From a virus, in the IMG/VR virus record IMGVR_UViG_3300046804_001650, positions 1-24,298 of that record: a DNA stretch of 24,298 bases. One strand, given 5' to 3'. Made by a program: the position numbers and the translations under genes. Below are positions 2,592 through 12,008 of this stretch, in pieces. Within the stretch, counting starts at the first letter, position 1, and each line of letters opens with the position of its first letter. The notes under the pieces are model-generated. The model had not been told where the DNA came from. It saw only the letters and a list, made by a program, of their open reading frames with translations, and made no database searches.

Positions 2592-4208
2592 TCACGACGC
2601 CTTCTTCGGCATGGGTTGAACATTTGCAGGCGGTGGCTGCATAGCCTGCTTTTCTTCCTGCTTTTTCAACTTTTCTTTGAGCATCTGCTTCATCGGGGGA
2701 TCAAGCATATCAATTAAGCTGGCCTTATCGATAGCCTGTGCTTTGTAGAGATTGAATGCCAAAGCGCGCAGATCTTCCATGAAAATCGGACTATTTGAGT
2801 GAGCATCGACCTTCACAACATAGTTTTTCGTGAATTGCTCTGCGATAAACTTCTGACCTTCAACATCAGTGTAATGCGTGGGGTCATAAGCCTGAATGAG
2901 CTTCAGATAGAGCGTCGATAGCTTTTCAAGCGAGCTTTCAACGATAAGAGCGCGTTTCTTGGCGCGCGAGGAGCCCAGACGCGCAAGTTGCGAAGCATGA
3001 CCAGCCGAACGAACGCCCTGTTCGCCACGACCCGACAGAACGCTAGAAATACCAGAGGCTTCAGCAAACATCTCATCGATTTCACGCAACTGCTCGTAAA
3101 CGCTTTGCGGAATGTCAGGGGCCAAACGCTCAACTTTGGCGTTAGGCATATCCGTACCGAATAGGCCACCGGCGCGGTTCAAAGCAAAGTTCTTTTCGTC
3201 CAAGATGCCGGTAAAGCCAATCAAGGCCGTCGGCGGGGCAACTTGCTTTGACAGAAGGTCCAAGATTTCCTGCATACGCTTGTTGCGCATATCTTGCAGA
3301 TACATCAAGCGCTGCACTTCAGATTGGCCCCAATAATAGTGCGGCATGGGGTTCGGGCAGACTTGAACGAAGGGGCTTTCGCCCTTCAAGAACATCTTTT
3401 CGTTTTCACGATCATAGATGATCACATCCGGATCTGCTTTCGTCACGACTTGATAATCGTGCGTCTCATCGTTCCAGACATAAAGTTCTGTCATCTCTAC
3501 GGTGTCTTCATCAACCGATGGTTTCATACGGTTGTAGCCGTAAAGGTTCATGTTGACGTTGCCGTAGATCTGCGGATCAACCGCCGACAGGATCACGCGA
3601 TCAAGGCCATCAGGCACATATTCTTCGTGATGTTGTGAGGCCATAATTCGCTTGATCAGCTCTTCGCGTTTTGGATGCGAATAGAGGCGCGCATAGAGAT
3701 CTGACTTGGTGATGTAGAAGGTGTGAACAAAGGCTTCCTGCCGGTCGGTGTAAGGGATGTCCTCACGCAAAACACCAAAGCTGGAAGGGTCCACAAAGTA
3801 GGGATGAATACCGCCATTGGCGTAAACGAGCTTCACAAAGCCGCTGTTGTAAACCATTGCCCAGGTCAAGGCCGTGGCAAAGACTTGGTCAGCGTTCGAA
3901 TTGTTCCACTCGTCATTGAGCACTTGCTCAAGTTTAGGAATGTAGCGGAATTGCTCGTCCCTGGCCGATGCACCCAGATTGATAGAGAACCTGGTGGTGT
4001 CAGCCGAATAGAGGAACGAGATCAGTTGGTCGATGTGAGGGTAGATCTTGTTGAAAAGAGCCGGAGATTCCTCCGGCCCATTCCCGAACAGATAGTAAGA
4101 GCGAAGGGCTGAATAATCAGCGCGGCGGTCTTCGCGGGAGACCAAGCACTTACGGATCAGATCCAGATAGAATTCTTCGCGATCTTGCGGGTTCTTCGGG
4201 ATAATCAT
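2592..4208 (-). CDS. Portal protein
   Basis: This 538-residue protein has the size and pattern of a phage portal. It forms the dodecameric ring at one capsid vertex through which the terminase pumps DNA and to which the tail attaches. Visible portal-like parts include an N-terminal helical region with KIYPHIDQLISFLYSAD, a central beta-rich clip/wing region with YVWNDETHDYQVV, and a late segment near residues 310-420 (MQEILDLLSKQVAPP, GISSVLSGRGEQGVRSAGHASQLA). The C-terminal 40 residues are a charged helix followed by a Pro/Gln/Lys tail. It starts by a four-base ATGA overlap with the zinc-ribbon protein and is separated from the terminase by only two small genes. The identification combines residue pattern, length and the terminase-portal-scaffold-capsid order. 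Confidence 0.9.
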   Translation of the reverse strand: MIIPKNPQDREEFYLDLIRKCLVSREDRRADYSALRSYYLFGNGPEESPALFNKIYPHIDQLISFLYSADTTRFSINLGASARDEQFRYIPKLEQVLNDEWNNSNADQVFATALTWAMVYNSGFVKLVYANGGIHPYFVDPSSFGVLREDIPYTDRQEAFVHTFYITKSDLYARLYSHPKREELIKRIMASQHHEEYVPDGLDRVILSAVDPQIYGNVNMNLYGYNRMKPSVDEDTVEMTELYVWNDETHDYQVVTKADPDVIIYDRENEKMFLKGESPFVQVCPNPMPHYYWGQSEVQRLMYLQDMRNKRMQEILDLLSKQVAPPTALIGFTGILDEKNFALNRAGGLFGTDMPNAKVERLAPDIPQSVYEQLREIDEMFAEASGISSVLSGRGEQGVRSAGHASQLARLGSSRAKKRALIVESSLEKLSTLYLKLIQAYDPTHYTDVEGQKFIAEQFTKNYVVKVDAHSNSPIFMEDLRALAFNLYKAQAIDKASLIDMLDPPMKQMLKEKLKKQEEKQAMQPPPANVQPMPKKAS

Positions 4209-4681: not shown

Positions 4682-5081
4682 TTCGTCCTCCAGCGGTCAG
4701 TTCTTCCTCAAATGTGGGGTCTGAATAGTCAGATTTGTTCTTCAGGCCCACTTTCAAGCCTATTTTGCCGTCCTTGATGGTCAGAGTGTTGGCTTTGACC
4801 ACTCTGGGCTTCGGTTCCTGCCGGTAAAGCAGTCTCCGGCGCTGGTCGCGGCCATAGACCATCACGACATCGCCCCTCGCCATCCGTTCTAGGGCGCGAG
4901 AGACGCAGATTTGGGTGTGCTCCGTCATAGGGAGTGTTTTGTCGTGGAACACACGGTACAGGAGGCTTGGAGAAAGGCCACAAAACTCTGCGAACATTTG
5001 GATCGACAGAGTTCTGTCCTCGTCCTGCCAGAACCTTTCCATCCGGCGATAGATCTCGGCTTTGGTGAGGATCTTCATCAT
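4665..5081 (-). CDS. Helix-turn-helix protein, possible small terminase or regulator
   Basis: This is a 138-residue basic protein. Residues about 27-60 (FAEFCGLSPSLLYRVF and the following helix ending ICVSRALERM) look like a helix-turn-helix. The C-terminal half is short beta-like segments rich in Lys and Arg, ending in a polar tail. Two adjacent ATGs exist; the first (5081) shares a base with the terminase TAA in a TAATG junction. A DNA-binding protein beside the large terminase could be the small terminase subunit, which usually precedes it, or a late regulator. I see no decisive family signature, so the name stays structural. Confidence 0.7.
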   Translation of the reverse strand: MMKILTKAEIYRRMERFWQDEDRTLSIQMFAEFCGLSPSLLYRVFHDKTLPMTEHTQICVSRALERMARGDVVMVYGRDQRRRLLYRQEPKPRVVKANTLTIKDGKIGLKVGLKNKSDYSDPTFEEELTAGGRNGNSA

Positions 5082-6838
5082 TAGCCATATCCAATCCGCT
5101 TCAGATAGTCAGAGACATTGCGACCAACCGTTACTTCTTCCGGCGTCAAGGCTTCTTGAGCCTTAGAAACGTCACGGGTCAAGCGACGGATCAAAAGCTG
5201 GGGCTGGACTTGCTCGGCATAGGCGGCTGCGGCCAAGGCTGCGGCAATGACGCGATCATCTTTGCCACGACCAGGAGCTTGAATCGAGCCGCCGTCACGC
5301 ACGATGCCCTTCATCTCTTCAAGAAGCTCCATTGAATGCACGCGCATGATGTCGCGCTCGAAATAATCCTTGAAGTAGTTGAGCATACGTTCTTTGGATG
5401 CGTGTGTGGTCAGCCAACCAATCGAATTTGAAATGCCACCAAGCGTATCGTTCTTACGCCAGATGTAATTGGTCATGTGAGATAAGACGGCCATGAGTTC
5501 ACGGCCACCTTGCTCAATCGGCGTCACGCTTGCTTGTCGCTTGAGGTTTCTAAGTTCGTTGATGACGGCTTGGCCGGGGCCGTTAACTTCCAGATTAAGC
5601 GTAGAATTTTTATACGCTCCAGCCAAGTGAGCGATGACCCACGCAAATTGGTAAGTGTTAAGCTCACTAGTTGCGAATTCGGCGACCTGATCGATGCCAT
5701 CAGCGTAGCACCGGAAAACTTGAATACTGAAACGGTCGGCCCAATCGCTACTCCCGTAAGCTGGATCGGCTCCAATGACATAGTAGGCTGTGTCGATGGG
5801 CTCTTCCCAGATTTTGAGAGTGCAGACTTTGTCTGAGCTTTTGAGGACTTCGGTGTCTTGGAAGTTCGCGCCAAACGCATAGCGGTAAGCGTCGAATTTT
5901 TTATTTTTCGCGGAGCGCGCGGCATCAGAGCACCTTGCGTTAGAGAAGAAGTTCGTGCCTGTCATTACGAAGGCATAGTCTTCCGTTGGCGGGAATTCTT
6001 GATACATGAGTGCATCGTCTTTAATACCTTCATGCAGTTTCCAGCGCCACCAAGCGATCTGACGCGAATTGATTTCAACGCCATACATCTTCTTGATGTC
6101 GCGAACCCATTCTTTTTCTTCGCCGGTCAGTCGTCCATCCCAATAGGTCTTGTATTCAGGCGTTGATGGGTCAGCCGAGTAGAATTGGTTATGCCACCAG
6201 CCACAGAAAATAGCTCGCTGTGTGCGAGCGCGTTTAGCTGTGACATACATATCGTGAAACATATTGAACCCACGCGCCGTGCTCTCAAAGAGATAGAGAC
6301 GGTCAGGGTTCTTTTCAGCTAACGAGGCAAGCAGAGAAGCAAGCCCTTCTTCATCGCCCCAAGAGCTTGTTTCAGTGCCGTGTAGGTAGGTGATTGCCTT
6401 ACCGCGTCCAAGCGAGCCTTTAGCGCGCAATCCCGCCACCTGATAGAACAGTCGAGAGCGATTTCGGAGAGAGAGCGCATTACGATTATGTGTAACTTGC
6501 GGTATTTTGAATTGAGGAGGAAGTCCGTCCATGTACATAGCCAGTGTGGTGCGGAACATATCCCTATTTTCTTCTGTATCAGTAGTGAGAGTTCCTTGGA
6601 GACCTGGATGAGTAAAGTGCCAGTAAAGATCAAGAGCCAGAGAAATGGTAGTAATGCCCAACTGACGGCCTTTAAGAATAACGAAGAAATGGCAGTCATC
6701 TTCTAGCCCCTTGGCGATCTCATTCATCGTATAGGTCTGAGTGCCCAACAAAGTGTCGAGCCGCTTCAAACCTTGCTCTTTCGTTTCGATACGAAGCTGG
6801 CGACAGAAATGATAAAACTTCTCGACGTTGAATGTCAT
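5081..6838 (-). CDS. terL: Terminase large subunit (packaging ATPase and nuclease)
   Basis: This 585-residue protein contains both expected domains. The N-terminal ATPase has a Walker A-like LKGRQLGITT at 55-64 and an acidic SSWGDEEG stretch at about 158-165 in the Walker B region. The C-terminal RNase H-like nuclease has GADPAYG with D357, the second acid in LEVNGPG (E416) and GKDDRVIAAA with D526/D527. It would cut concatemeric DNA and drive it through the portal. It begins one base after the radical SAM stop (TAA, C, ATG) with only a weak GGCGG upstream, so translation probably depends on the upstream gene. The full set of catalytic residues indicates an active enzyme. Packaging type cannot be told by eye. 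Confidence 0.93.
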   Translation of the reverse strand: MTFNVEKFYHFCRQLRIETKEQGLKRLDTLLGTQTYTMNEIAKGLEDDCHFFVILKGRQLGITTISLALDLYWHFTHPGLQGTLTTDTEENRDMFRTTLAMYMDGLPPQFKIPQVTHNRNALSLRNRSRLFYQVAGLRAKGSLGRGKAITYLHGTETSSWGDEEGLASLLASLAEKNPDRLYLFESTARGFNMFHDMYVTAKRARTQRAIFCGWWHNQFYSADPSTPEYKTYWDGRLTGEEKEWVRDIKKMYGVEINSRQIAWWRWKLHEGIKDDALMYQEFPPTEDYAFVMTGTNFFSNARCSDAARSAKNKKFDAYRYAFGANFQDTEVLKSSDKVCTLKIWEEPIDTAYYVIGADPAYGSSDWADRFSIQVFRCYADGIDQVAEFATSELNTYQFAWVIAHLAGAYKNSTLNLEVNGPGQAVINELRNLKRQASVTPIEQGGRELMAVLSHMTNYIWRKNDTLGGISNSIGWLTTHASKERMLNYFKDYFERDIMRVHSMELLEEMKGIVRDGGSIQAPGRGKDDRVIAAALAAAAYAEQVQPQLLIRRLTRDVSKAQEALTPEEVTVGRNVSDYLKRIGYG

Positions 6839-6839
6839 G

Positions 6840-7724
6840 TTAGCCGCCGCTGTTATAGAGGGTCACGCGCTTATTGATTGTTTCTTCTTTTTCCAACAAT
6901 ACGGCTTTGCGATCATTCTTCAAAGCGATGTCTGCATTGCTGATTGTATAGGTATCAATCTCGTCGCTGTCGCGTGCTGCTTTCTGTTTTGCAGGCACAC
7001 CGCAACCAGGACAGAAGCGCTTGATCTGATCTTCGAAGTCACGCGCCACAGATTTCCACCAGCCATCTGTCACCGGCTGACCATGATCTTGTCCACGAGC
7101 CAAGTCAAAGCTCGCAGCAACTTCACAGAAGTAAACACGAAGTTCGCCCTTGTTCTGGACGATAGAGGCTGACCATTCTTTGTTGATGTCGCAGTTAGAA
7201 ATTCTTTCCCACATTTCTTTCTCAGGAAAGAGATCTTTGACTGCGGTTAAAAGCGGTGCGTGTTCAGAATGACCACCGTAAAACCATGACAGAGCGCCGT
7301 TGCTTGAGACAGTTTTGTGTAGGTCAAGAAGATTAGCTTCCGCACGAGCCTCACCGTGGCTGTTGAGGTTAAACGTGCCAAAGGTCTCTTCGATGATCGT
7401 GCGATGCTTGAAGTAGTTGTTGGTCCACAGACCGCGCTGCAACTTGTTGGGCACTTCCTCGACAAAGATCCTGCACAGTTCCTCAAAGTCTTTGTGCATA
7501 CATGGATTGCCGCCGATCATGGCGATAACGCCAAAATAGCCTTTGAGGCTTTGCAGGGCTTTGCGGAAATTGTCAGGCGTCATTTCCCAAAACGCATCCT
7601 GGTTCTCAAGGAGCCTGGTGCAGTTCGAGCAAGCAAGGTCGCATTTGTTGGTCACATCAATGCAGATGATGTGCATATTGCGCGGCCCGCGCATTTTCAG
7701 AATGGCGTTATCTGCGTAGGTCAT
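6840..7724 (-). CDS. Radical SAM enzyme with C-terminal auxiliary Cys region
   Basis: This 294-residue protein has the radical SAM signature CxxxCxxC at C28, C32 and C35, which binds the [4Fe-4S] cluster that cleaves S-adenosylmethionine. A MIGGNP segment at 69-74 stands where many family members have GGEP. The C-terminal third has further Cys in SNCD, YFCEVA and FCPGCG, spaced like a SPASM or twitch auxiliary cluster. These occur in enzymes acting on peptides or other large substrates. The ATG at 7724 is chosen because it overlaps the upstream TGA (ATGA) and has AAAGGA upstream; a start six codons earlier lies inside the previous gene. It is the last gene before terminase in a coupled run of regulator, sugar-nucleotide enzyme and glycosyltransferase. 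Substrate unknown; peptide maturation, sugar chemistry or base modification remain open. Confidence 0.85.
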   Translation of the reverse strand: MTYADNAILKMRGPRNMHIICIDVTNKCDLACSNCTRLLENQDAFWEMTPDNFRKALQSLKGYFGVIAMIGGNPCMHKDFEELCRIFVEEVPNKLQRGLWTNNYFKHRTIIEETFGTFNLNSHGEARAEANLLDLHKTVSSNGALSWFYGGHSEHAPLLTAVKDLFPEKEMWERISNCDINKEWSASIVQNKGELRVYFCEVAASFDLARGQDHGQPVTDGWWKSVARDFEDQIKRFCPGCGVPAKQKAARDSDEIDTYTISNADIALKNDRKAVLLEKEETINKRVTLYNSGG

Positions 7725-8425
7725 TTGGTGTCCTTTGCCCAAGGATAGCCATCGGGAAACTGTGCGCGTGTCTTGATGTTGCCTTCAAAGAAAAAGCTAC
7801 GCAAATCACGCTTGCTATTGAGGCGGTAGTTTAAACTGTAAAGACCCGAGCAGGCGCTATCGAGTTTATTTTCTTTGAGTGCCTGGTAAACAAAGCGGTC
7901 GCCAACCATAAGTTCGCCGGTGGTGCGATACCAGAGCGGCGCGATCTGGACTGCGATCATGCGGTCCATAAGGTAGCAATTAAGGTCAATAAAGCCGCTG
8001 TAGTGCCCAAGGCTTTCAAAGTCATCGTTGGCAAAGAATGAGCCATCGACATTGCGAATACTACGCAGAGAATAAGCATAGGGCCGTTCACCTTTAGCCT
8101 CCACGAGTTTTTCGATGTGATTAGGCTCAAACCAATTATCATCGTCTAGCCAGCATATCATATCTTCTTGAACGAGATATGCGGAGGCCGCAACGATGCC
8201 GCCATTCATCATGCCATTGATGCCGGTACGAACAGGCAAGGCGCATTTGTGAACAATGCGCGGTTTGTTGCTAGGACCAAGGCTTACTTCAAATGTGTCA
8301 TGTTCATACATCCCGTCAACAAAGATGTAATGCTCGCAAGGATATGTCTGAGCAGCGACACTATCCATTGCCTGTTGAAGTTCTTTGCGCCCGGTGGTCG
8401 CGGTGACGACGGCAACAGTTTTCAT
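7721..8425 (-). CDS. Glycosyltransferase, GT-A fold (family 2-like)
   Basis: This 234-residue protein begins with the GT2-like strand [13 protein letters not shown] and SVAAQTYP helix. It has a DDD metal/nucleotide-sugar motif in [11 protein letters not shown] at residues 94-96, preceded by [15 protein letters not shown]. No membrane segment is seen, so it should act in the cytoplasm on a nucleotide-sugar donor. It overlaps both neighbours by ATGA junctions: the decarboxylase-like enzyme upstream, which could make its donor, and the radical SAM gene downstream. The acceptor is unknown; virion protein, peptide, DNA base or host surface glycan are all possible. Confidence 0.85.
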
Positions 8426-9339
8426 TTTACGATCCCCTTGAAGTATTCGATGGTTGTCTTGAGGCCGTCTTCAAGATCGACGCGCGGCGACCATTTCAAT
8501 TCATCCATAGCTTTCATAATGGACGGGCGACGGCGGGTTGGGTCATCGGTCGGCAGAGGCCGGAACGCAATCTCAGATTTGCTGCCTGTCAAAGTTTTGA
8601 CAGCTACAGCTAGTTCCAGCATCGTAAATTCTTTAGGATTGCCCAGGTTGACCGGCTCGGTGACGTTTGAGTTCATCAGTTTGACCAGGCCGTCGATCAG
8701 GTCTGAGACGTAGCAGAACGAGCGGGTCTGTCGTCCATTGCCATAGATAGTTAGGGGTTTGCCTAACAGGGCTTGGACAATGAAGTTTGAGACCACACGG
8801 CCATCATCAACGGCCATGCGCGGCCCGTAGGTATTGAAGATACGGGCGACACGCACATCGACCCTGTGCTGCCGGTGGTAGTCGTAGCAGAGTGTCTCTG
8901 CCGCTCGCTTGCCCTCGTCATAGCAGGCCCGTGGGCCATTTGGATTGACGTTACCCCAATAGCTTTCGGCCTGGGGATGCTGCGTCGGATCGCCATAGAT
9001 CTCAGACGTCGAGGCTTGCAAGACGCGACCACCGTGGGCCTGGGCGTTGCGCAAGGCGCAATGCATGCCAATGATATTGGTCATCAAGGTTTCGATGGGT
9101 TGACGTTGATAGGCCACCGGCGAGGCGGGGCAAGCCAGGTTATAGATCTGGTCAAACTTCTCAGGAATGCCGTGCTTGACGTTAATTTCCCAAAGCCGAA
9201 CCTTTTCAACGTGCGGAATGTTTTCAAGACTGCCGGTCGAAAGATCATCGAGCACGGTAATGTTGTGACCGTCCTTCAAAAGCCTATCGACCAGGTGAGA
9301 CCCCAAGAAGCCAGCGCCGCCGGTTACTAGAATTTTCAT
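8422..9339 (-). CDS. NAD-dependent epimerase/dehydratase, UDP-glucuronate decarboxylase-like
   Basis: This 305-residue short-chain dehydrogenase/reductase has the Rossmann motif GGAGFLG at 7-13. Its catalytic Tyr and Lys lie in YDEGK (Y140, K144), preceded by TSEIYGDP (111-118). The segments [30 protein letters not shown] and [11 protein letters not shown] closely match UDP-glucuronate decarboxylase (UDP-xylose synthase), which converts UDP-glucuronate to UDP-xylose with CO2 release. The family is well established; exact substrate is inferred from motif similarity. Length matches soluble bacterial forms, and no membrane anchor is present. It overlaps the winged-helix gene and the glycosyltransferase by four bases each, so regulator, donor synthesis and transfer are one transcriptional unit. 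Confidence 0.87.
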
Positions 9340-9725
9340 AATCCACAGACCTTTGCGAGATGTCGTTTATCGAAGTCTGGCATTTTATAACCAATGCCAC
9401 GAACCGTCTGAATGTGAACGCCGTGCTTTGCGAGCTTGTGTCGCAACTTGCAGATCGTGACCTTCACCCTGCCGGTGATGTGGTAGTTATTGGTCGATCT
9501 GCTTTGGTGGCAGAAGCCTTCCATGATCTCATCCAGAAAGTCCTGCGTTGCCACGTTTGCGTTATAGAGCGCTTGCGTCAAAAGCGCCTGCTGCGGCGAT
9601 AGGCTCAACTTTCCAGCGAACGGATTGATCTTAGGACTAAGCGTATCTTTCAGATACTCGACCTCGCCCTCAAGATAGGCCACCCGTTGCCGCAAGGCGG
9701 CGATTTCTTTTTGATAAGCATCCAT
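9336..9725 (-). CDS. OmpR/PhoB-type winged-helix regulator with coiled-coil N-terminus
   Basis: This 129-residue protein has a short coiled coil at about residues 1-30 ([20 protein letters not shown]). It is followed by an OmpR-type winged helix with [16 protein letters not shown] and the wing [13 protein letters not shown]. That recognition region resembles CtrA of alphaproteobacteria, but the receiver domain is absent, so it is probably not phosphorylation-controlled; the coiled coil may replace it for dimerisation. The ATG at 9725 is chosen because GGGGA lies five bases upstream, matching other starts here; an adjacent ATG at 9728 and a GTG at 9737 are alternatives. It heads the coupled run into sugar, radical SAM and terminase genes, so it could control late transcription. 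Repeated TTAA sites lie just upstream. Confidence 0.75.
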
Positions 9726-9741
9726 CATCGTCCCCACGATG

Positions 9742-9797
9742 TTAATGAACCTTAAATAAGGAAGAACCGTTATTAAAGCAAAACGCCTCTTCCTTAA
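9742..9797 (-). promoter_or_regulatory. TTAA cluster and hairpin upstream of winged-helix gene
   Basis: The gap between the tRNA and the regulator contains four TTAA motifs (9742, 9752, 9773, 9794). The first two are direct repeats spaced by six bases, one short of the TTAA-N7-TTAA layout of CtrA boxes. A 9-bp inverted repeat (9757-9765 with 9788-9796, AAGGAAGA/TCTTCCTT core) with a 22-base loop could form a hairpin in the transcript, perhaps marking processing of the tRNA from the mRNA. It could be an autoregulatory site of the downstream protein. Both roles are inferences from motif and position. Confidence 0.4.
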
Positions 9798-9802
9798 ATA
9801 GT

Positions 9803-9879
9803 TGGTTGCAGGGGCAGGATTTGAACCTGCGACCTTCTGGGTATGAACCAGATGAGCTACCAGACTGCTCTACCCTGCG
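9803..9879 (-). tRNA. Initiator tRNA-fMet (anticodon CAT), CCA encoded
   Basis: The 77-base gene folds as a complete cloverleaf: acceptor CGCAGGG with CCCTGCA, D stem GAGC/GCTC, anticodon stem TCTGG/CCAGA with loop TTCATAC, T stem GCAGG/CCTGC with loop TTCAAAT, discriminator A and encoded CCA. Two bacterial initiator hallmarks are present: unpaired C1 with A72, and A11-T24 in the D stem. The anticodon stem keeps only the two inner of the usual three G-C pairs, the outer being T-A at 29-41. The gene lies six bases after the Cys-rich peptide ORF and before the regulator, all minus strand, so it is probably cut from a polycistronic RNA. A phage copy could raise initiator supply during infection. 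An elongator Met tRNA would have a paired first base. Confidence 0.95.
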
Positions 9880-11070: not shown

Positions 11071-11319
11071 ATGGATCTTACATCTGCATTCCTGGACGGC
11101 TATAACTGCCAATGCGGCGATATAGATAATCCCTATATCTACTCGAGCCCTTTGTGGCTCGCATTCCGTGCCGGATCTCAATTTGCAAAGTATGGCACTA
11201 GCACCCCGATTAAATGCCGATCGAGCCGGGGCTACACTCTGCGCGTGTTCAGCCATTCAAATGAATGGATCGCAAAGCCTGATAACACTCTCCTCTCATG
11301 GGAATTCGCTCGCAAGTAG
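11071..11319 (+). CDS. Small early protein, 82 residues
   Basis: The protein starts MDLTSAFLDGYNCQCGDIDN, has a middle LWLAFRAGSQFAKYG and ends LLSWEFARK. The ATG at 11071 is chosen because GGGGAC lies five bases upstream, as at several other starts; a longer frame from 11035 would begin inside the previous gene. Two Cys (CQC) lie near the N-terminus, but there is no metal-site pair elsewhere except a single Cys later. No family recognised. It precedes a hairpin-containing leader of the sliding clamp-like gene. Confidence 0.65.
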   Translation: MDLTSAFLDGYNCQCGDIDNPYIYSSPLWLAFRAGSQFAKYGTSTPIKCRSSRGYTLRVFSHSNEWIAKPDNTLLSWEFARK

Positions 11320-11331
11320 CATTGCAGATCC

Positions 11332-11370
11332 GAGAGCCTCACGGGGCTCTCCAGTGTGCAATGGTGCACA
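11332..11370 (+). promoter_or_regulatory. Two hairpins in the leader of the clamp-like gene
   Basis: GAGAGCC (11332-11338) pairs with GGCTCTC (11345-11351), then TGTGCA (11355-11360) pairs with TGCACA (11365-11370) around a four-base ATGG loop. Both stems are perfect, and the second ends four bases before the GGGGAC ribosome site. No U-run follows, so these are not simple terminators; mRNA processing or translational control of the clamp gene is more likely. Confidence 0.5.
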
Positions 11371-11384
11371 ACATGGGGACGAAC

Positions 11385-12008
11385 ATGCAGATCAATCTCA
11401 AAGCACTCAAGGTGGCCGCTCTATTCGTTTCGAGCGACGAGGCCCGTTACTATCTTATGGGCGTTTGCGTCGAGTCACGTCCAGACGGATTCGTGTTTAC
11501 CGCCACGAATGGTCATTACCTCACTATGGTTCGGCATGATTACATGGATGGTCAGGTCATGCAGTCCTGGGCACCGTTCATTATCCCGATCAGCCTGATC
11601 GACCGTGTAAAGCTATCCCGCCATTGCGACGTCGCGGATCTCGACCTGAATGGCGACGCAATCTCAATTCACTACATGGGCGCGACGTACACCGAGAACC
11701 GTGTAGATGGCACATTCCCTGACGCGCGCCGTGTCGTACCGGCTTCAGTATCGGGCGAAGTAGCACAATTTAACCCGGCCTATATCGCCCTGTTTGGCAA
11801 GGCTAAGGCTCTAATCAAAGGCTCAAAAGGTGAGAACCTGATTACCATTGCCCACAATGGTGGAAGCCCTGCCCTGGTCGATTTTGTGCCATCTGATGCA
11901 GACTTCCAGGGCTTTGGCGTTCTGATGCCATACCGCGCAGCCGAGTGCCTGACAGCGCCTCCAGCCTGGGCAAATGTGATCGGCTCAAGTGTCGCTCAAG
12001 CGGCATAA
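11385..12008 (+). CDS. DNA sliding clamp-like protein (short DnaN-type)
   Basis: This 207-residue protein resembles the last two domains of the bacterial beta clamp. It has ARYYLMGVCVE followed by DGFVFTATNGHYLTM (compare ATDGHRLA in DnaN), the domain-3 start DGTFPDARRVVP and a C-terminal GVLMPYR matching the clamp end MPMR. Bacterial clamps have three domains and about 365 residues, so one domain is missing. T4 gp45 likewise has two domains and forms a trimer. It would encircle DNA and hold a polymerase or other partners; no polymerase gene is in the window. The start at 11385 has GGGGAC five bases upstream; a longer frame from 11298 lacks this. Assignment is by motif recognition. Confidence 0.72.
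   Translation: MQINLKALKVAALFVSSDEARYYLMGVCVESRPDGFVFTATNGHYLTMVRHDYMDGQVMQSWAPFIIPISLIDRVKLSRHCDVADLDLNGDAISIHYMGATYTENRVDGTFPDARRVVPASVSGEVAQFNPAYIALFGKAKALIKGSKGENLITIAHNGGSPALVDFVPSDADFQGFGVLMPYRAAECLTAPPAWANVIGSSVAQAA

What the first reader, a model, noticed from the sequence alone, without database searches (positions are those of the whole stretch)
9803..9879. Phage-encoded initiator tRNA with a relaxed anticodon stem
The cloverleaf has the C1/A72 mismatch and A11-T24 pair of bacterial initiator tRNA, so it is not a plain Met tRNA. Phages that carry tRNAs usually carry elongators. The third G-C pair of the anticodon stem, important for P-site selection, is replaced by T-A. It may supply starts at this phage's GGGGAC-led, GTG and TTG start codons.
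Basis: partly seen in the sequence, partly recalled or inferred. Interest (0 to 1): 0.8.

Follow-up and report, generated by a model that had tools for sequence, protein, structure and literature searches.

The report
Phage initiator tRNA, altered anticodon arm
A freshwater phage carries its own translation-starting tRNA, which keeps the features needed to begin proteins but has a phage-specific version of the arm that some bacterial toxins cut; many unrelated phages carry tRNAs of this kind.

Summary
In detail: 9879-9803 on the minus strand is an intact tRNA with anticodon CAU, C1·A72, A11-U24 and an encoded CCA. A host-initiator covariance model scores it 96 bits, against 59 for E. coli elongator tRNA-Met. 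It lies in a phage late operon, and relatives carry the same gene just upstream of terminase, usually with tRNA-Arg(ACG).

The 'relaxed' 29:41 pair needs correcting. A29-U41 is already normal in the likely host class: 82 of 83 alphaproteobacterial matches have it. The phage-specific part is the flipped pair U29-A41, the loop U32/C38 instead of C32/A38, and A26. U29-A41 was found in 1 of 289 alphaproteobacterial genomes, and that copy sits inside a Mu-like prophage. A scan for initiators with U29-A41 plus the UUCAUAC loop hit 96 viral contigs.

Across 106 intact viral initiators 1:72 is G-C in only 2; in the 119-sequence set 30:40 is G-C in 116 and 29:41 drifts. Within the window's family the anticodon arm changed at least nine times on the terminase tree.

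Best reading: a working replacement initiator whose remodelled arm is likely to evade host nucleases that cut tRNA-fMet at 38/39. Function is inferred; evasion is untested. Support for GUG/UUG starts was not found.

The parts
9803..9879 (-). initiator-type tRNA gene (CAU), encoded CCA at 9805-9803
   Evidence: ARAGORN, Rfam RF00005, initiator covariance model 96 bits, fold
9879..9879 (-). C1, mismatched with A72 at 9807 (formylation determinant)
   Evidence: sequence; 1:72 is G-C in only 2 of 106 viral initiators
9838..9850 (-). inner anticodon stem and loop: U29 (9850)-A41 (9838), G30-C40, G31-C39, U32 (9847), CAU 9845-9843, C38 (9841)
   Evidence: sequence; host comparison; viral survey
9853..9853 (-). 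A26 (G in nearly all sampled host initiators)
9757..9796 (-). strong hairpin immediately 3' of the tRNA (AAGGAAGA / TCTTCCTT); role unknown
   Evidence: fold z=-4.76
6840..9737 (-). cargo genes between tRNA and terminase (DNA-binding regulator domain, NAD epimerase, glycosyltransferase 2, radical SAM); relatives have tRNA-Arg(ACG) here
   Evidence: Pfam/PHROG; synteny
5081..6838 (-). terminase large subunit
   Evidence: PHROG phrog_2, Pfam Terminase_6C; 523 relatives in IMG/VR
2592..4208 (-). portal protein (SU10-like)
   Evidence: Pfam PF23899, E=2.3e-16

Best explanation
The gene makes a working initiator tRNA transcribed with the phage's late genes. It is charged with Met and formylated because the 1:72 pair is weak and A11-U24, G2-C71 and C3-G70 are kept (inferred from known determinants). 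It enters the ribosomal P site because G30-C40 and G31-C39 are kept and 29:41 is read only through the backbone (inferred from structures). Its anticodon arm differs from the host's at 26, 29:41, 32 and 38, which flank the A38/C39 bond cut in tRNA-fMet by VapC-type toxins. The most likely reason is that host initiator tRNA is cut during infection and the phage copy is not, so late proteins can still be started. Retention of initiator features is shown by sequence. Formylation, initiation and especially nuclease resistance are inferred.
For: Initiator identity: model score 96 bits against 59 for elongator Met and 57 for tRNA-Arg. Constraint in 106 viral initiators: 2:71 to 7:66 are 99-100% paired, 1:72 is G-C in only 2, and many different mismatches are used; 30:40 is G-C in 116 of 119. 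Phage-specific arm: U29-A41 in 23 of 106 viral initiators and 0 of 97 Pseudomonadota host matches, p=1e-7; 1 of 289 alphaproteobacterial genomes, inside a prophage. The U29-A41 + UUCAUAC arm sits on 73 unique viral initiator bodies. The arm turns over: 8 types in 27 phages, at least 9 changes on the terminase tree, and the arm moves between bodies (L040/L042 against L031). Literature: enteric VapC cuts tRNA-fMet between A38 and C39 (PMC4105405); VapCs of the alphaproteobacteria Bosea and Rickettsia target tRNA-fMet (PMC8522696, PMC12321070); phage tRNAs with anticodon-loop mutations were proposed to evade such nucleases (PMC10264068).
Against: The host and its nucleases are unknown, and no cleavage or initiation was measured. 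The partner tRNA-Arg(ACG) keeps CUACGAA, which I take to be the ordinary loop, so evasion is not a general property of the cassette. Most viral initiators (96 of 106) keep the usual CUCAUAA loop, and Komagataeibacter phage phiKX1 has the arm typical of alphaproteobacterial hosts. The D arm and nt 8-9 also vary more than in hosts, so drift contributes. Some relatives have lost or broken the tRNA (L007, L011, and a clade without any), so it is not always needed. The recognition elements of fMet-cutting VapCs for 29:41 and 26 are not known to me.
Confidence: 0.45

Rival explanations
1. Supply without evasion: the phage adds an initiator tRNA to raise initiation capacity when host tRNA is limiting; arm differences are neutral changes tolerated by the P site (29:41 contacts only the backbone, 32/38 are lenient).
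For: Variation falls where structures predict tolerance while 30:40 and 1:72 are held (PMC11497404). Most viral initiators keep the usual loop. D arm and nt 8-9 vary too.
Against: Alphaproteobacterial hosts do not drift at 29:41 or the loop (82 of 83 A-U). The same U29-A41 + UUCAUAC combination recurs on many bodies, and arm changes are frequent on a shallow tree.
Confidence: 0.35
2. Broader start-codon use: the changed stem loosens P-site gripping, so the phage initiates at GUG, UUG or other weak starts.
For: Changing 30:40 in E. coli reduces discrimination against CUG in vitro (PMC11497404).
Against: 30:40 is kept; the anticodon is unchanged; most starts in the window look like ATG and 8 of 9 GGGGAC-led starts are ATG. 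Alphaproteobacterial hosts also lack G-C at 29:41.
Confidence: 0.05
3. Selfish or structural role: the tRNA genes are recombination substrates or RNA processing signals at the head of the late operon, with no role in initiation.
For: Cassette recombines between T arms (L007) and decays (L011); conserved place upstream of terminase; hairpin just 3'.
Against: Initiator-specific features (weak 1:72, A11-U24) would not be held across phages if only folding or homology mattered; no integrase was seen among the window proteins scanned.
Confidence: 0.1

Closest known systems
Bacterial initiator tRNA-fMet (alphaproteobacterial type)
   Same: CAU anticodon, C1·A72, A11-U24, G2-C71, C3-G70, G30-C40, G31-C39, AGGUC variable loop, UUCAAAU T loop, CCA
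   Different: U29-A41 instead of A29-U41, U32/C38 instead of C32/A38, A26 instead of G26, A4-U69 instead of G4-C69
Phage tRNAs with anticodon-loop mutations that evade anticodon nucleases (van den Berg et al. 2023, PMC10264068)
   Same: phage-encoded; changed at and near a known nuclease cut site of the host counterpart (VapC, A38/C39)
   Different: an initiator, which that paper says enterobacterial phages generally avoid; changes extend into the stem and nt 26; resistance not tested
Initiator tRNAs annotated in Caulobacter phages (CcrSC, CcrColossus) and found in Ochrobactrum phage POI1126
   Same: phage initiators with weak 1:72 and U29-A41; POI1126 also has the UUCAUAC loop and A26
   Different: different phage groups; Caulobacter ones keep the CUCAUAA loop
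E. coli '3GC mutant' initiator tRNAs used to study P-site selection
   Same: not all three G-C pairs present
   Different: only 29:41 is changed here; 30:40 and 31:39 are kept

Membership tests
bacterial initiator tRNA (tRNA-fMet) | CAU anticodon in a complete cloverleaf | tested here: met
bacterial initiator tRNA (tRNA-fMet) | weak or mismatched 1:72 pair | tested here: met
   C1·A72
bacterial initiator tRNA (tRNA-fMet) | A11-U24, G2-C71, C3-G70 (formylation helpers, PMC7949028) | tested here: met
   sequence
bacterial initiator tRNA (tRNA-fMet) | three consecutive G-C pairs 29:41, 30:40, 31:39 | tested here: not met
   29:41 is U-A; but 82 of 83 alphaproteobacterial initiator matches have A-U there, so full 3GC does not define the class
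bacterial initiator tRNA (tRNA-fMet) | is formylated and initiates translation | not testable with these tools
   needs biochemistry
elongator tRNA-Met | paired 1:72 and no A11-U24; no preference for initiator model | tested here: not met
   C1·A72, A11-U24; 96 bits against 59 bits for E. coli metT/metU on the initiator model
nuclease-evading phage tRNAs | host counterpart is a documented nuclease target | tested here: inconclusive
   literature only, other hosts: PMC4105405, PMC8522696, PMC12321070
nuclease-evading phage tRNAs | differs from host tRNA at or beside the cut site | tested here: met
   C38 for A38; U32, U29-A41, A26; host class itself is inferred
nuclease-evading phage tRNAs | resists the nuclease and rescues phage growth | not testable with these tools
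   needs experiment

The most novel reading that the evidence does not exclude
Phages of many lineages carry replacement initiator tRNAs whose anticodon arms are diversified and swapped as modules in an arms race with host nucleases that shut down translation by cutting tRNA-fMet; initiator tRNA would be a contested immune target.
Probability: 0.35. Interest if true: 0.8.

Novelty: new variant of a known kind. Interest (0 to 1): 0.55.

Why it matters
Initiator tRNA is thought to be nearly fixed by P-site selection, and phages were said to avoid carrying it. Viral sequences offer a natural mutation series: 1:72 stays weak by many different mismatches, 30:40 is held and 29:41 is free, which matches the A-minor contacts seen in structures. 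If the remodelled arm blocks fMet-specific nucleases, it would show that bacteria fight phages by cutting initiator tRNA and that phages bring a resistant copy. This can be tested directly in laboratory strains.

Tried and rejected
Exact 77-base match in viral contigs: none. Host chromosomal gene or contamination: rejected, phage flanks and no sampled host with this arm. Elongator: rejected. Arm borrowed from an elongator tRNA-Met: the 23-base arm occurs in viruses almost only on initiator bodies, so not supported. My first reading, that losing 29:41 G-C is itself phage-specific, was dropped when the genome scan and alphaproteobacterial sample showed A29-U41 is the host norm. The region diversity comparison is partly circular for the host anticodon arm, because the host set was chosen by a pattern; (stem-agnostic pattern) are the sound baseline. 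Host identification: terminase has no close isolate relative; tRNA-Arg best matches are mostly Alphaproteobacteria, so the host class is only inferred. Winther and Gerdes 2011 is not held and was not read.

Full report
What is there. The window is a 24,298-base virus record. ARAGORN and Rfam find one tRNA, anticodon CAU, at 9879-9803 on the minus strand. Read 5' to 3' it is CGCAGGG UA GAGC AGUCUGGUA GCUC A UCUGG UUCAUAC CCAGA AGGUC GCAGG UUCAAAU CCUGC CCCUGCA ACCA. C1·A72 is mismatched, A11-U24, G2-C71 and C3-G70 are present, and CCA is encoded. The anticodon stem has G30-C40 and G31-C39, but 29:41 is U-A. A covariance model built from 16 host initiators scores it 96 bits, against 59 for the two E. 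coli elongator Met tRNAs and 57 for a phage tRNA-Arg. It is therefore an initiator-type tRNA.

Surroundings. The gene lies in a minus-strand operon: a 79-aa ORF, the tRNA, then a regulator-like DNA-binding protein, NAD epimerase, glycosyltransferase, radical SAM protein, terminase and SU10-like portal. A RecE/RecT/RusA-type recombination set lies on the plus strand. At least 523 IMG/VR stretches encode relatives of the terminase. Of the 80 loci kept, 26 carry tRNA-Met upstream of terminase, mostly followed by tRNA-Arg(ACG) and sometimes with Gly(TCC) or Trp(CCA). Others, including a whole clade, show none.

Host baseline. A pattern that leaves the anticodon stem open was run on 96 Alphaproteobacteria genomes. 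I count 83 matches in 59 genomes: 29:41 is A-U in 82 and G-C in one, and the loop is CUCAUAA in 82. In 70 Pseudomonadota genomes I count 97 matches, 69 G-C and 28 A-U, all CUCAUAA. A search for U29-A41 initiators in 289 Alphaproteobacteria gave one hit. That hit has the UUCAUAC loop and lies between what look to me like Mu-type phage head genes, so it is a prophage gene. The likely host class is Alphaproteobacteria: the family's tRNA-Arg matches mostly genomes of that class best. Lacking G-C at 29:41 is therefore not unusual for the host. The flipped pair, U32/C38 and A26 are.

Viral survey. The same open pattern in viral contigs gave 119 unique initiators: 29:41 A-U 58, G-C 32, U-A 28; 30:40 G-C in 116; 31:39 G-C in 95. 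In the 106 with intact stems, acceptor pairs 2:71 to 7:66 are 99-100% paired, partly required by the filter, but 1:72 is paired in only 25, and 2 of those are G-C. U29-A41 in 23 of 106 against 0 of 97 host matches gives Fisher p=1e-7. The viral sample spans hosts of many phyla and the host sample only Pseudomonadota, so this p-value is indicative. A complete scan for U29-A41 with UUCAUAC found 96 viral contigs. Those read give 73 unique tRNAs, with 1:72 non-pairing in 66 and nt 26 A in 21. Isolates show it too: Caulobacter CcrColossus and CcrSC have U29-A41, and Ochrobactrum POI1126 has U29-A41, UUCAUAC, A26 and A1·A72.

Evolution in the family. Twenty-seven members carry eight anticodon-arm types. 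On the terminase tree this needs at least nine changes, and 29:41 switches between U-A and A-U at least five times without becoming G-C. L040 and L042 keep their clade's A1·A72 body but carry the UCUGG-UUCAUAC-CCAGA arm of the other clade, which indicates exchange of the arm. L007 is a fusion of the initiator with the 3' part of tRNA-Arg, and L011 has lost CCA and keeps an Arg remnant. The cassette therefore recombines and can be lost. Terminase and tRNA may have separate histories, so the change count is only indicative.

How it most likely works. Weak 1:72 with A11-U24 and G2-C71/C3-G70 are the known formylation determinants (PMC7949028). In ribosome structures A1339 reads 30:40 and G1338 touches 29:41 only through the 2'-OH of nt 41 (PMC11497404), which fits a fixed 30:40 and a free 29:41. 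The tRNA should thus be formylated and initiate; this is inferred. Enteric VapC cuts tRNA-fMet between A38 and C39 (PMC4105405), and alphaproteobacterial VapCs also target tRNA-fMet (PMC8522696, PMC12321070). The phage tRNA has C38 at the cut and further changes at 32, 29:41 and 26. I take nuclease evasion as the leading explanation of the altered arm (0.45), neutral change in a supplementary initiator as the main rival (0.35), and wider start-codon use as unlikely (0.05). Against evasion: the partner tRNA-Arg loop looks ordinary, and most viral initiators keep the usual loop.

Relation to known work. Phage tRNAs with anticodon-loop mutations were proposed to evade nucleases, and phages of enterobacteria were said to avoid tRNA-fMet (PMC10264068). 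Among the papers I could search I found no study of viral initiator tRNAs as a group. This is a new variant of a known kind.

Noticed in passing
L353:1471-1548 (minus strand): Initiator tRNA with U29-A41 and UUCAUAC loop lying between what look like Mu-type prophage head genes in an alphaproteobacterial genome.
   Followed up: partly
L007:9910-9985 and L011:3467-3600: Broken tRNA cassettes: in L007 the initiator is fused to the 3' part of tRNA-Arg at the shared T arm; in L011 it lacks CCA and is followed by a tRNA-Arg remnant.
   Followed up: partly
window 9757-9796: Strong hairpin (z=-4.76) directly 3' of the tRNA on its strand; no terminator T-run was reported there.
   Followed up: no
window 6840-9737: Cargo genes (regulator-like DNA-binding domain, epimerase, glycosyltransferase, radical SAM) sit where relatives have tRNA-Arg before terminase.
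   Followed up: no
window 11298-12008: 236-aa protein matching the central domain of the DNA polymerase III beta clamp (Pfam) and a RusA-named PHROG family.
   Followed up: no
window, e.g. 11071, 12072, 14553, 9725, 1347: GGGGAC precedes a possible start of an ORF of 60 aa or more at 9 of its 13 occurrences; 8 of these starts are ATG. Possibly the phage's ribosome-binding motif.
   Followed up: partly
G001 contig 15:81796-81833 and G014 contig 1:2943714-2943751: Second initiator tRNA with a CAAGG/CCUUG anticodon stem beside the usual ones in two alphaproteobacterial genomes; may be on mobile elements.
   Followed up: no
L082:6248-6270: ARAGORN misses an initiator tRNA-Met (U1-A72, UUCAUAC loop) in an 11-tRNA viral cluster, so automatic annotation may undercount viral initiators.
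   Followed up: no
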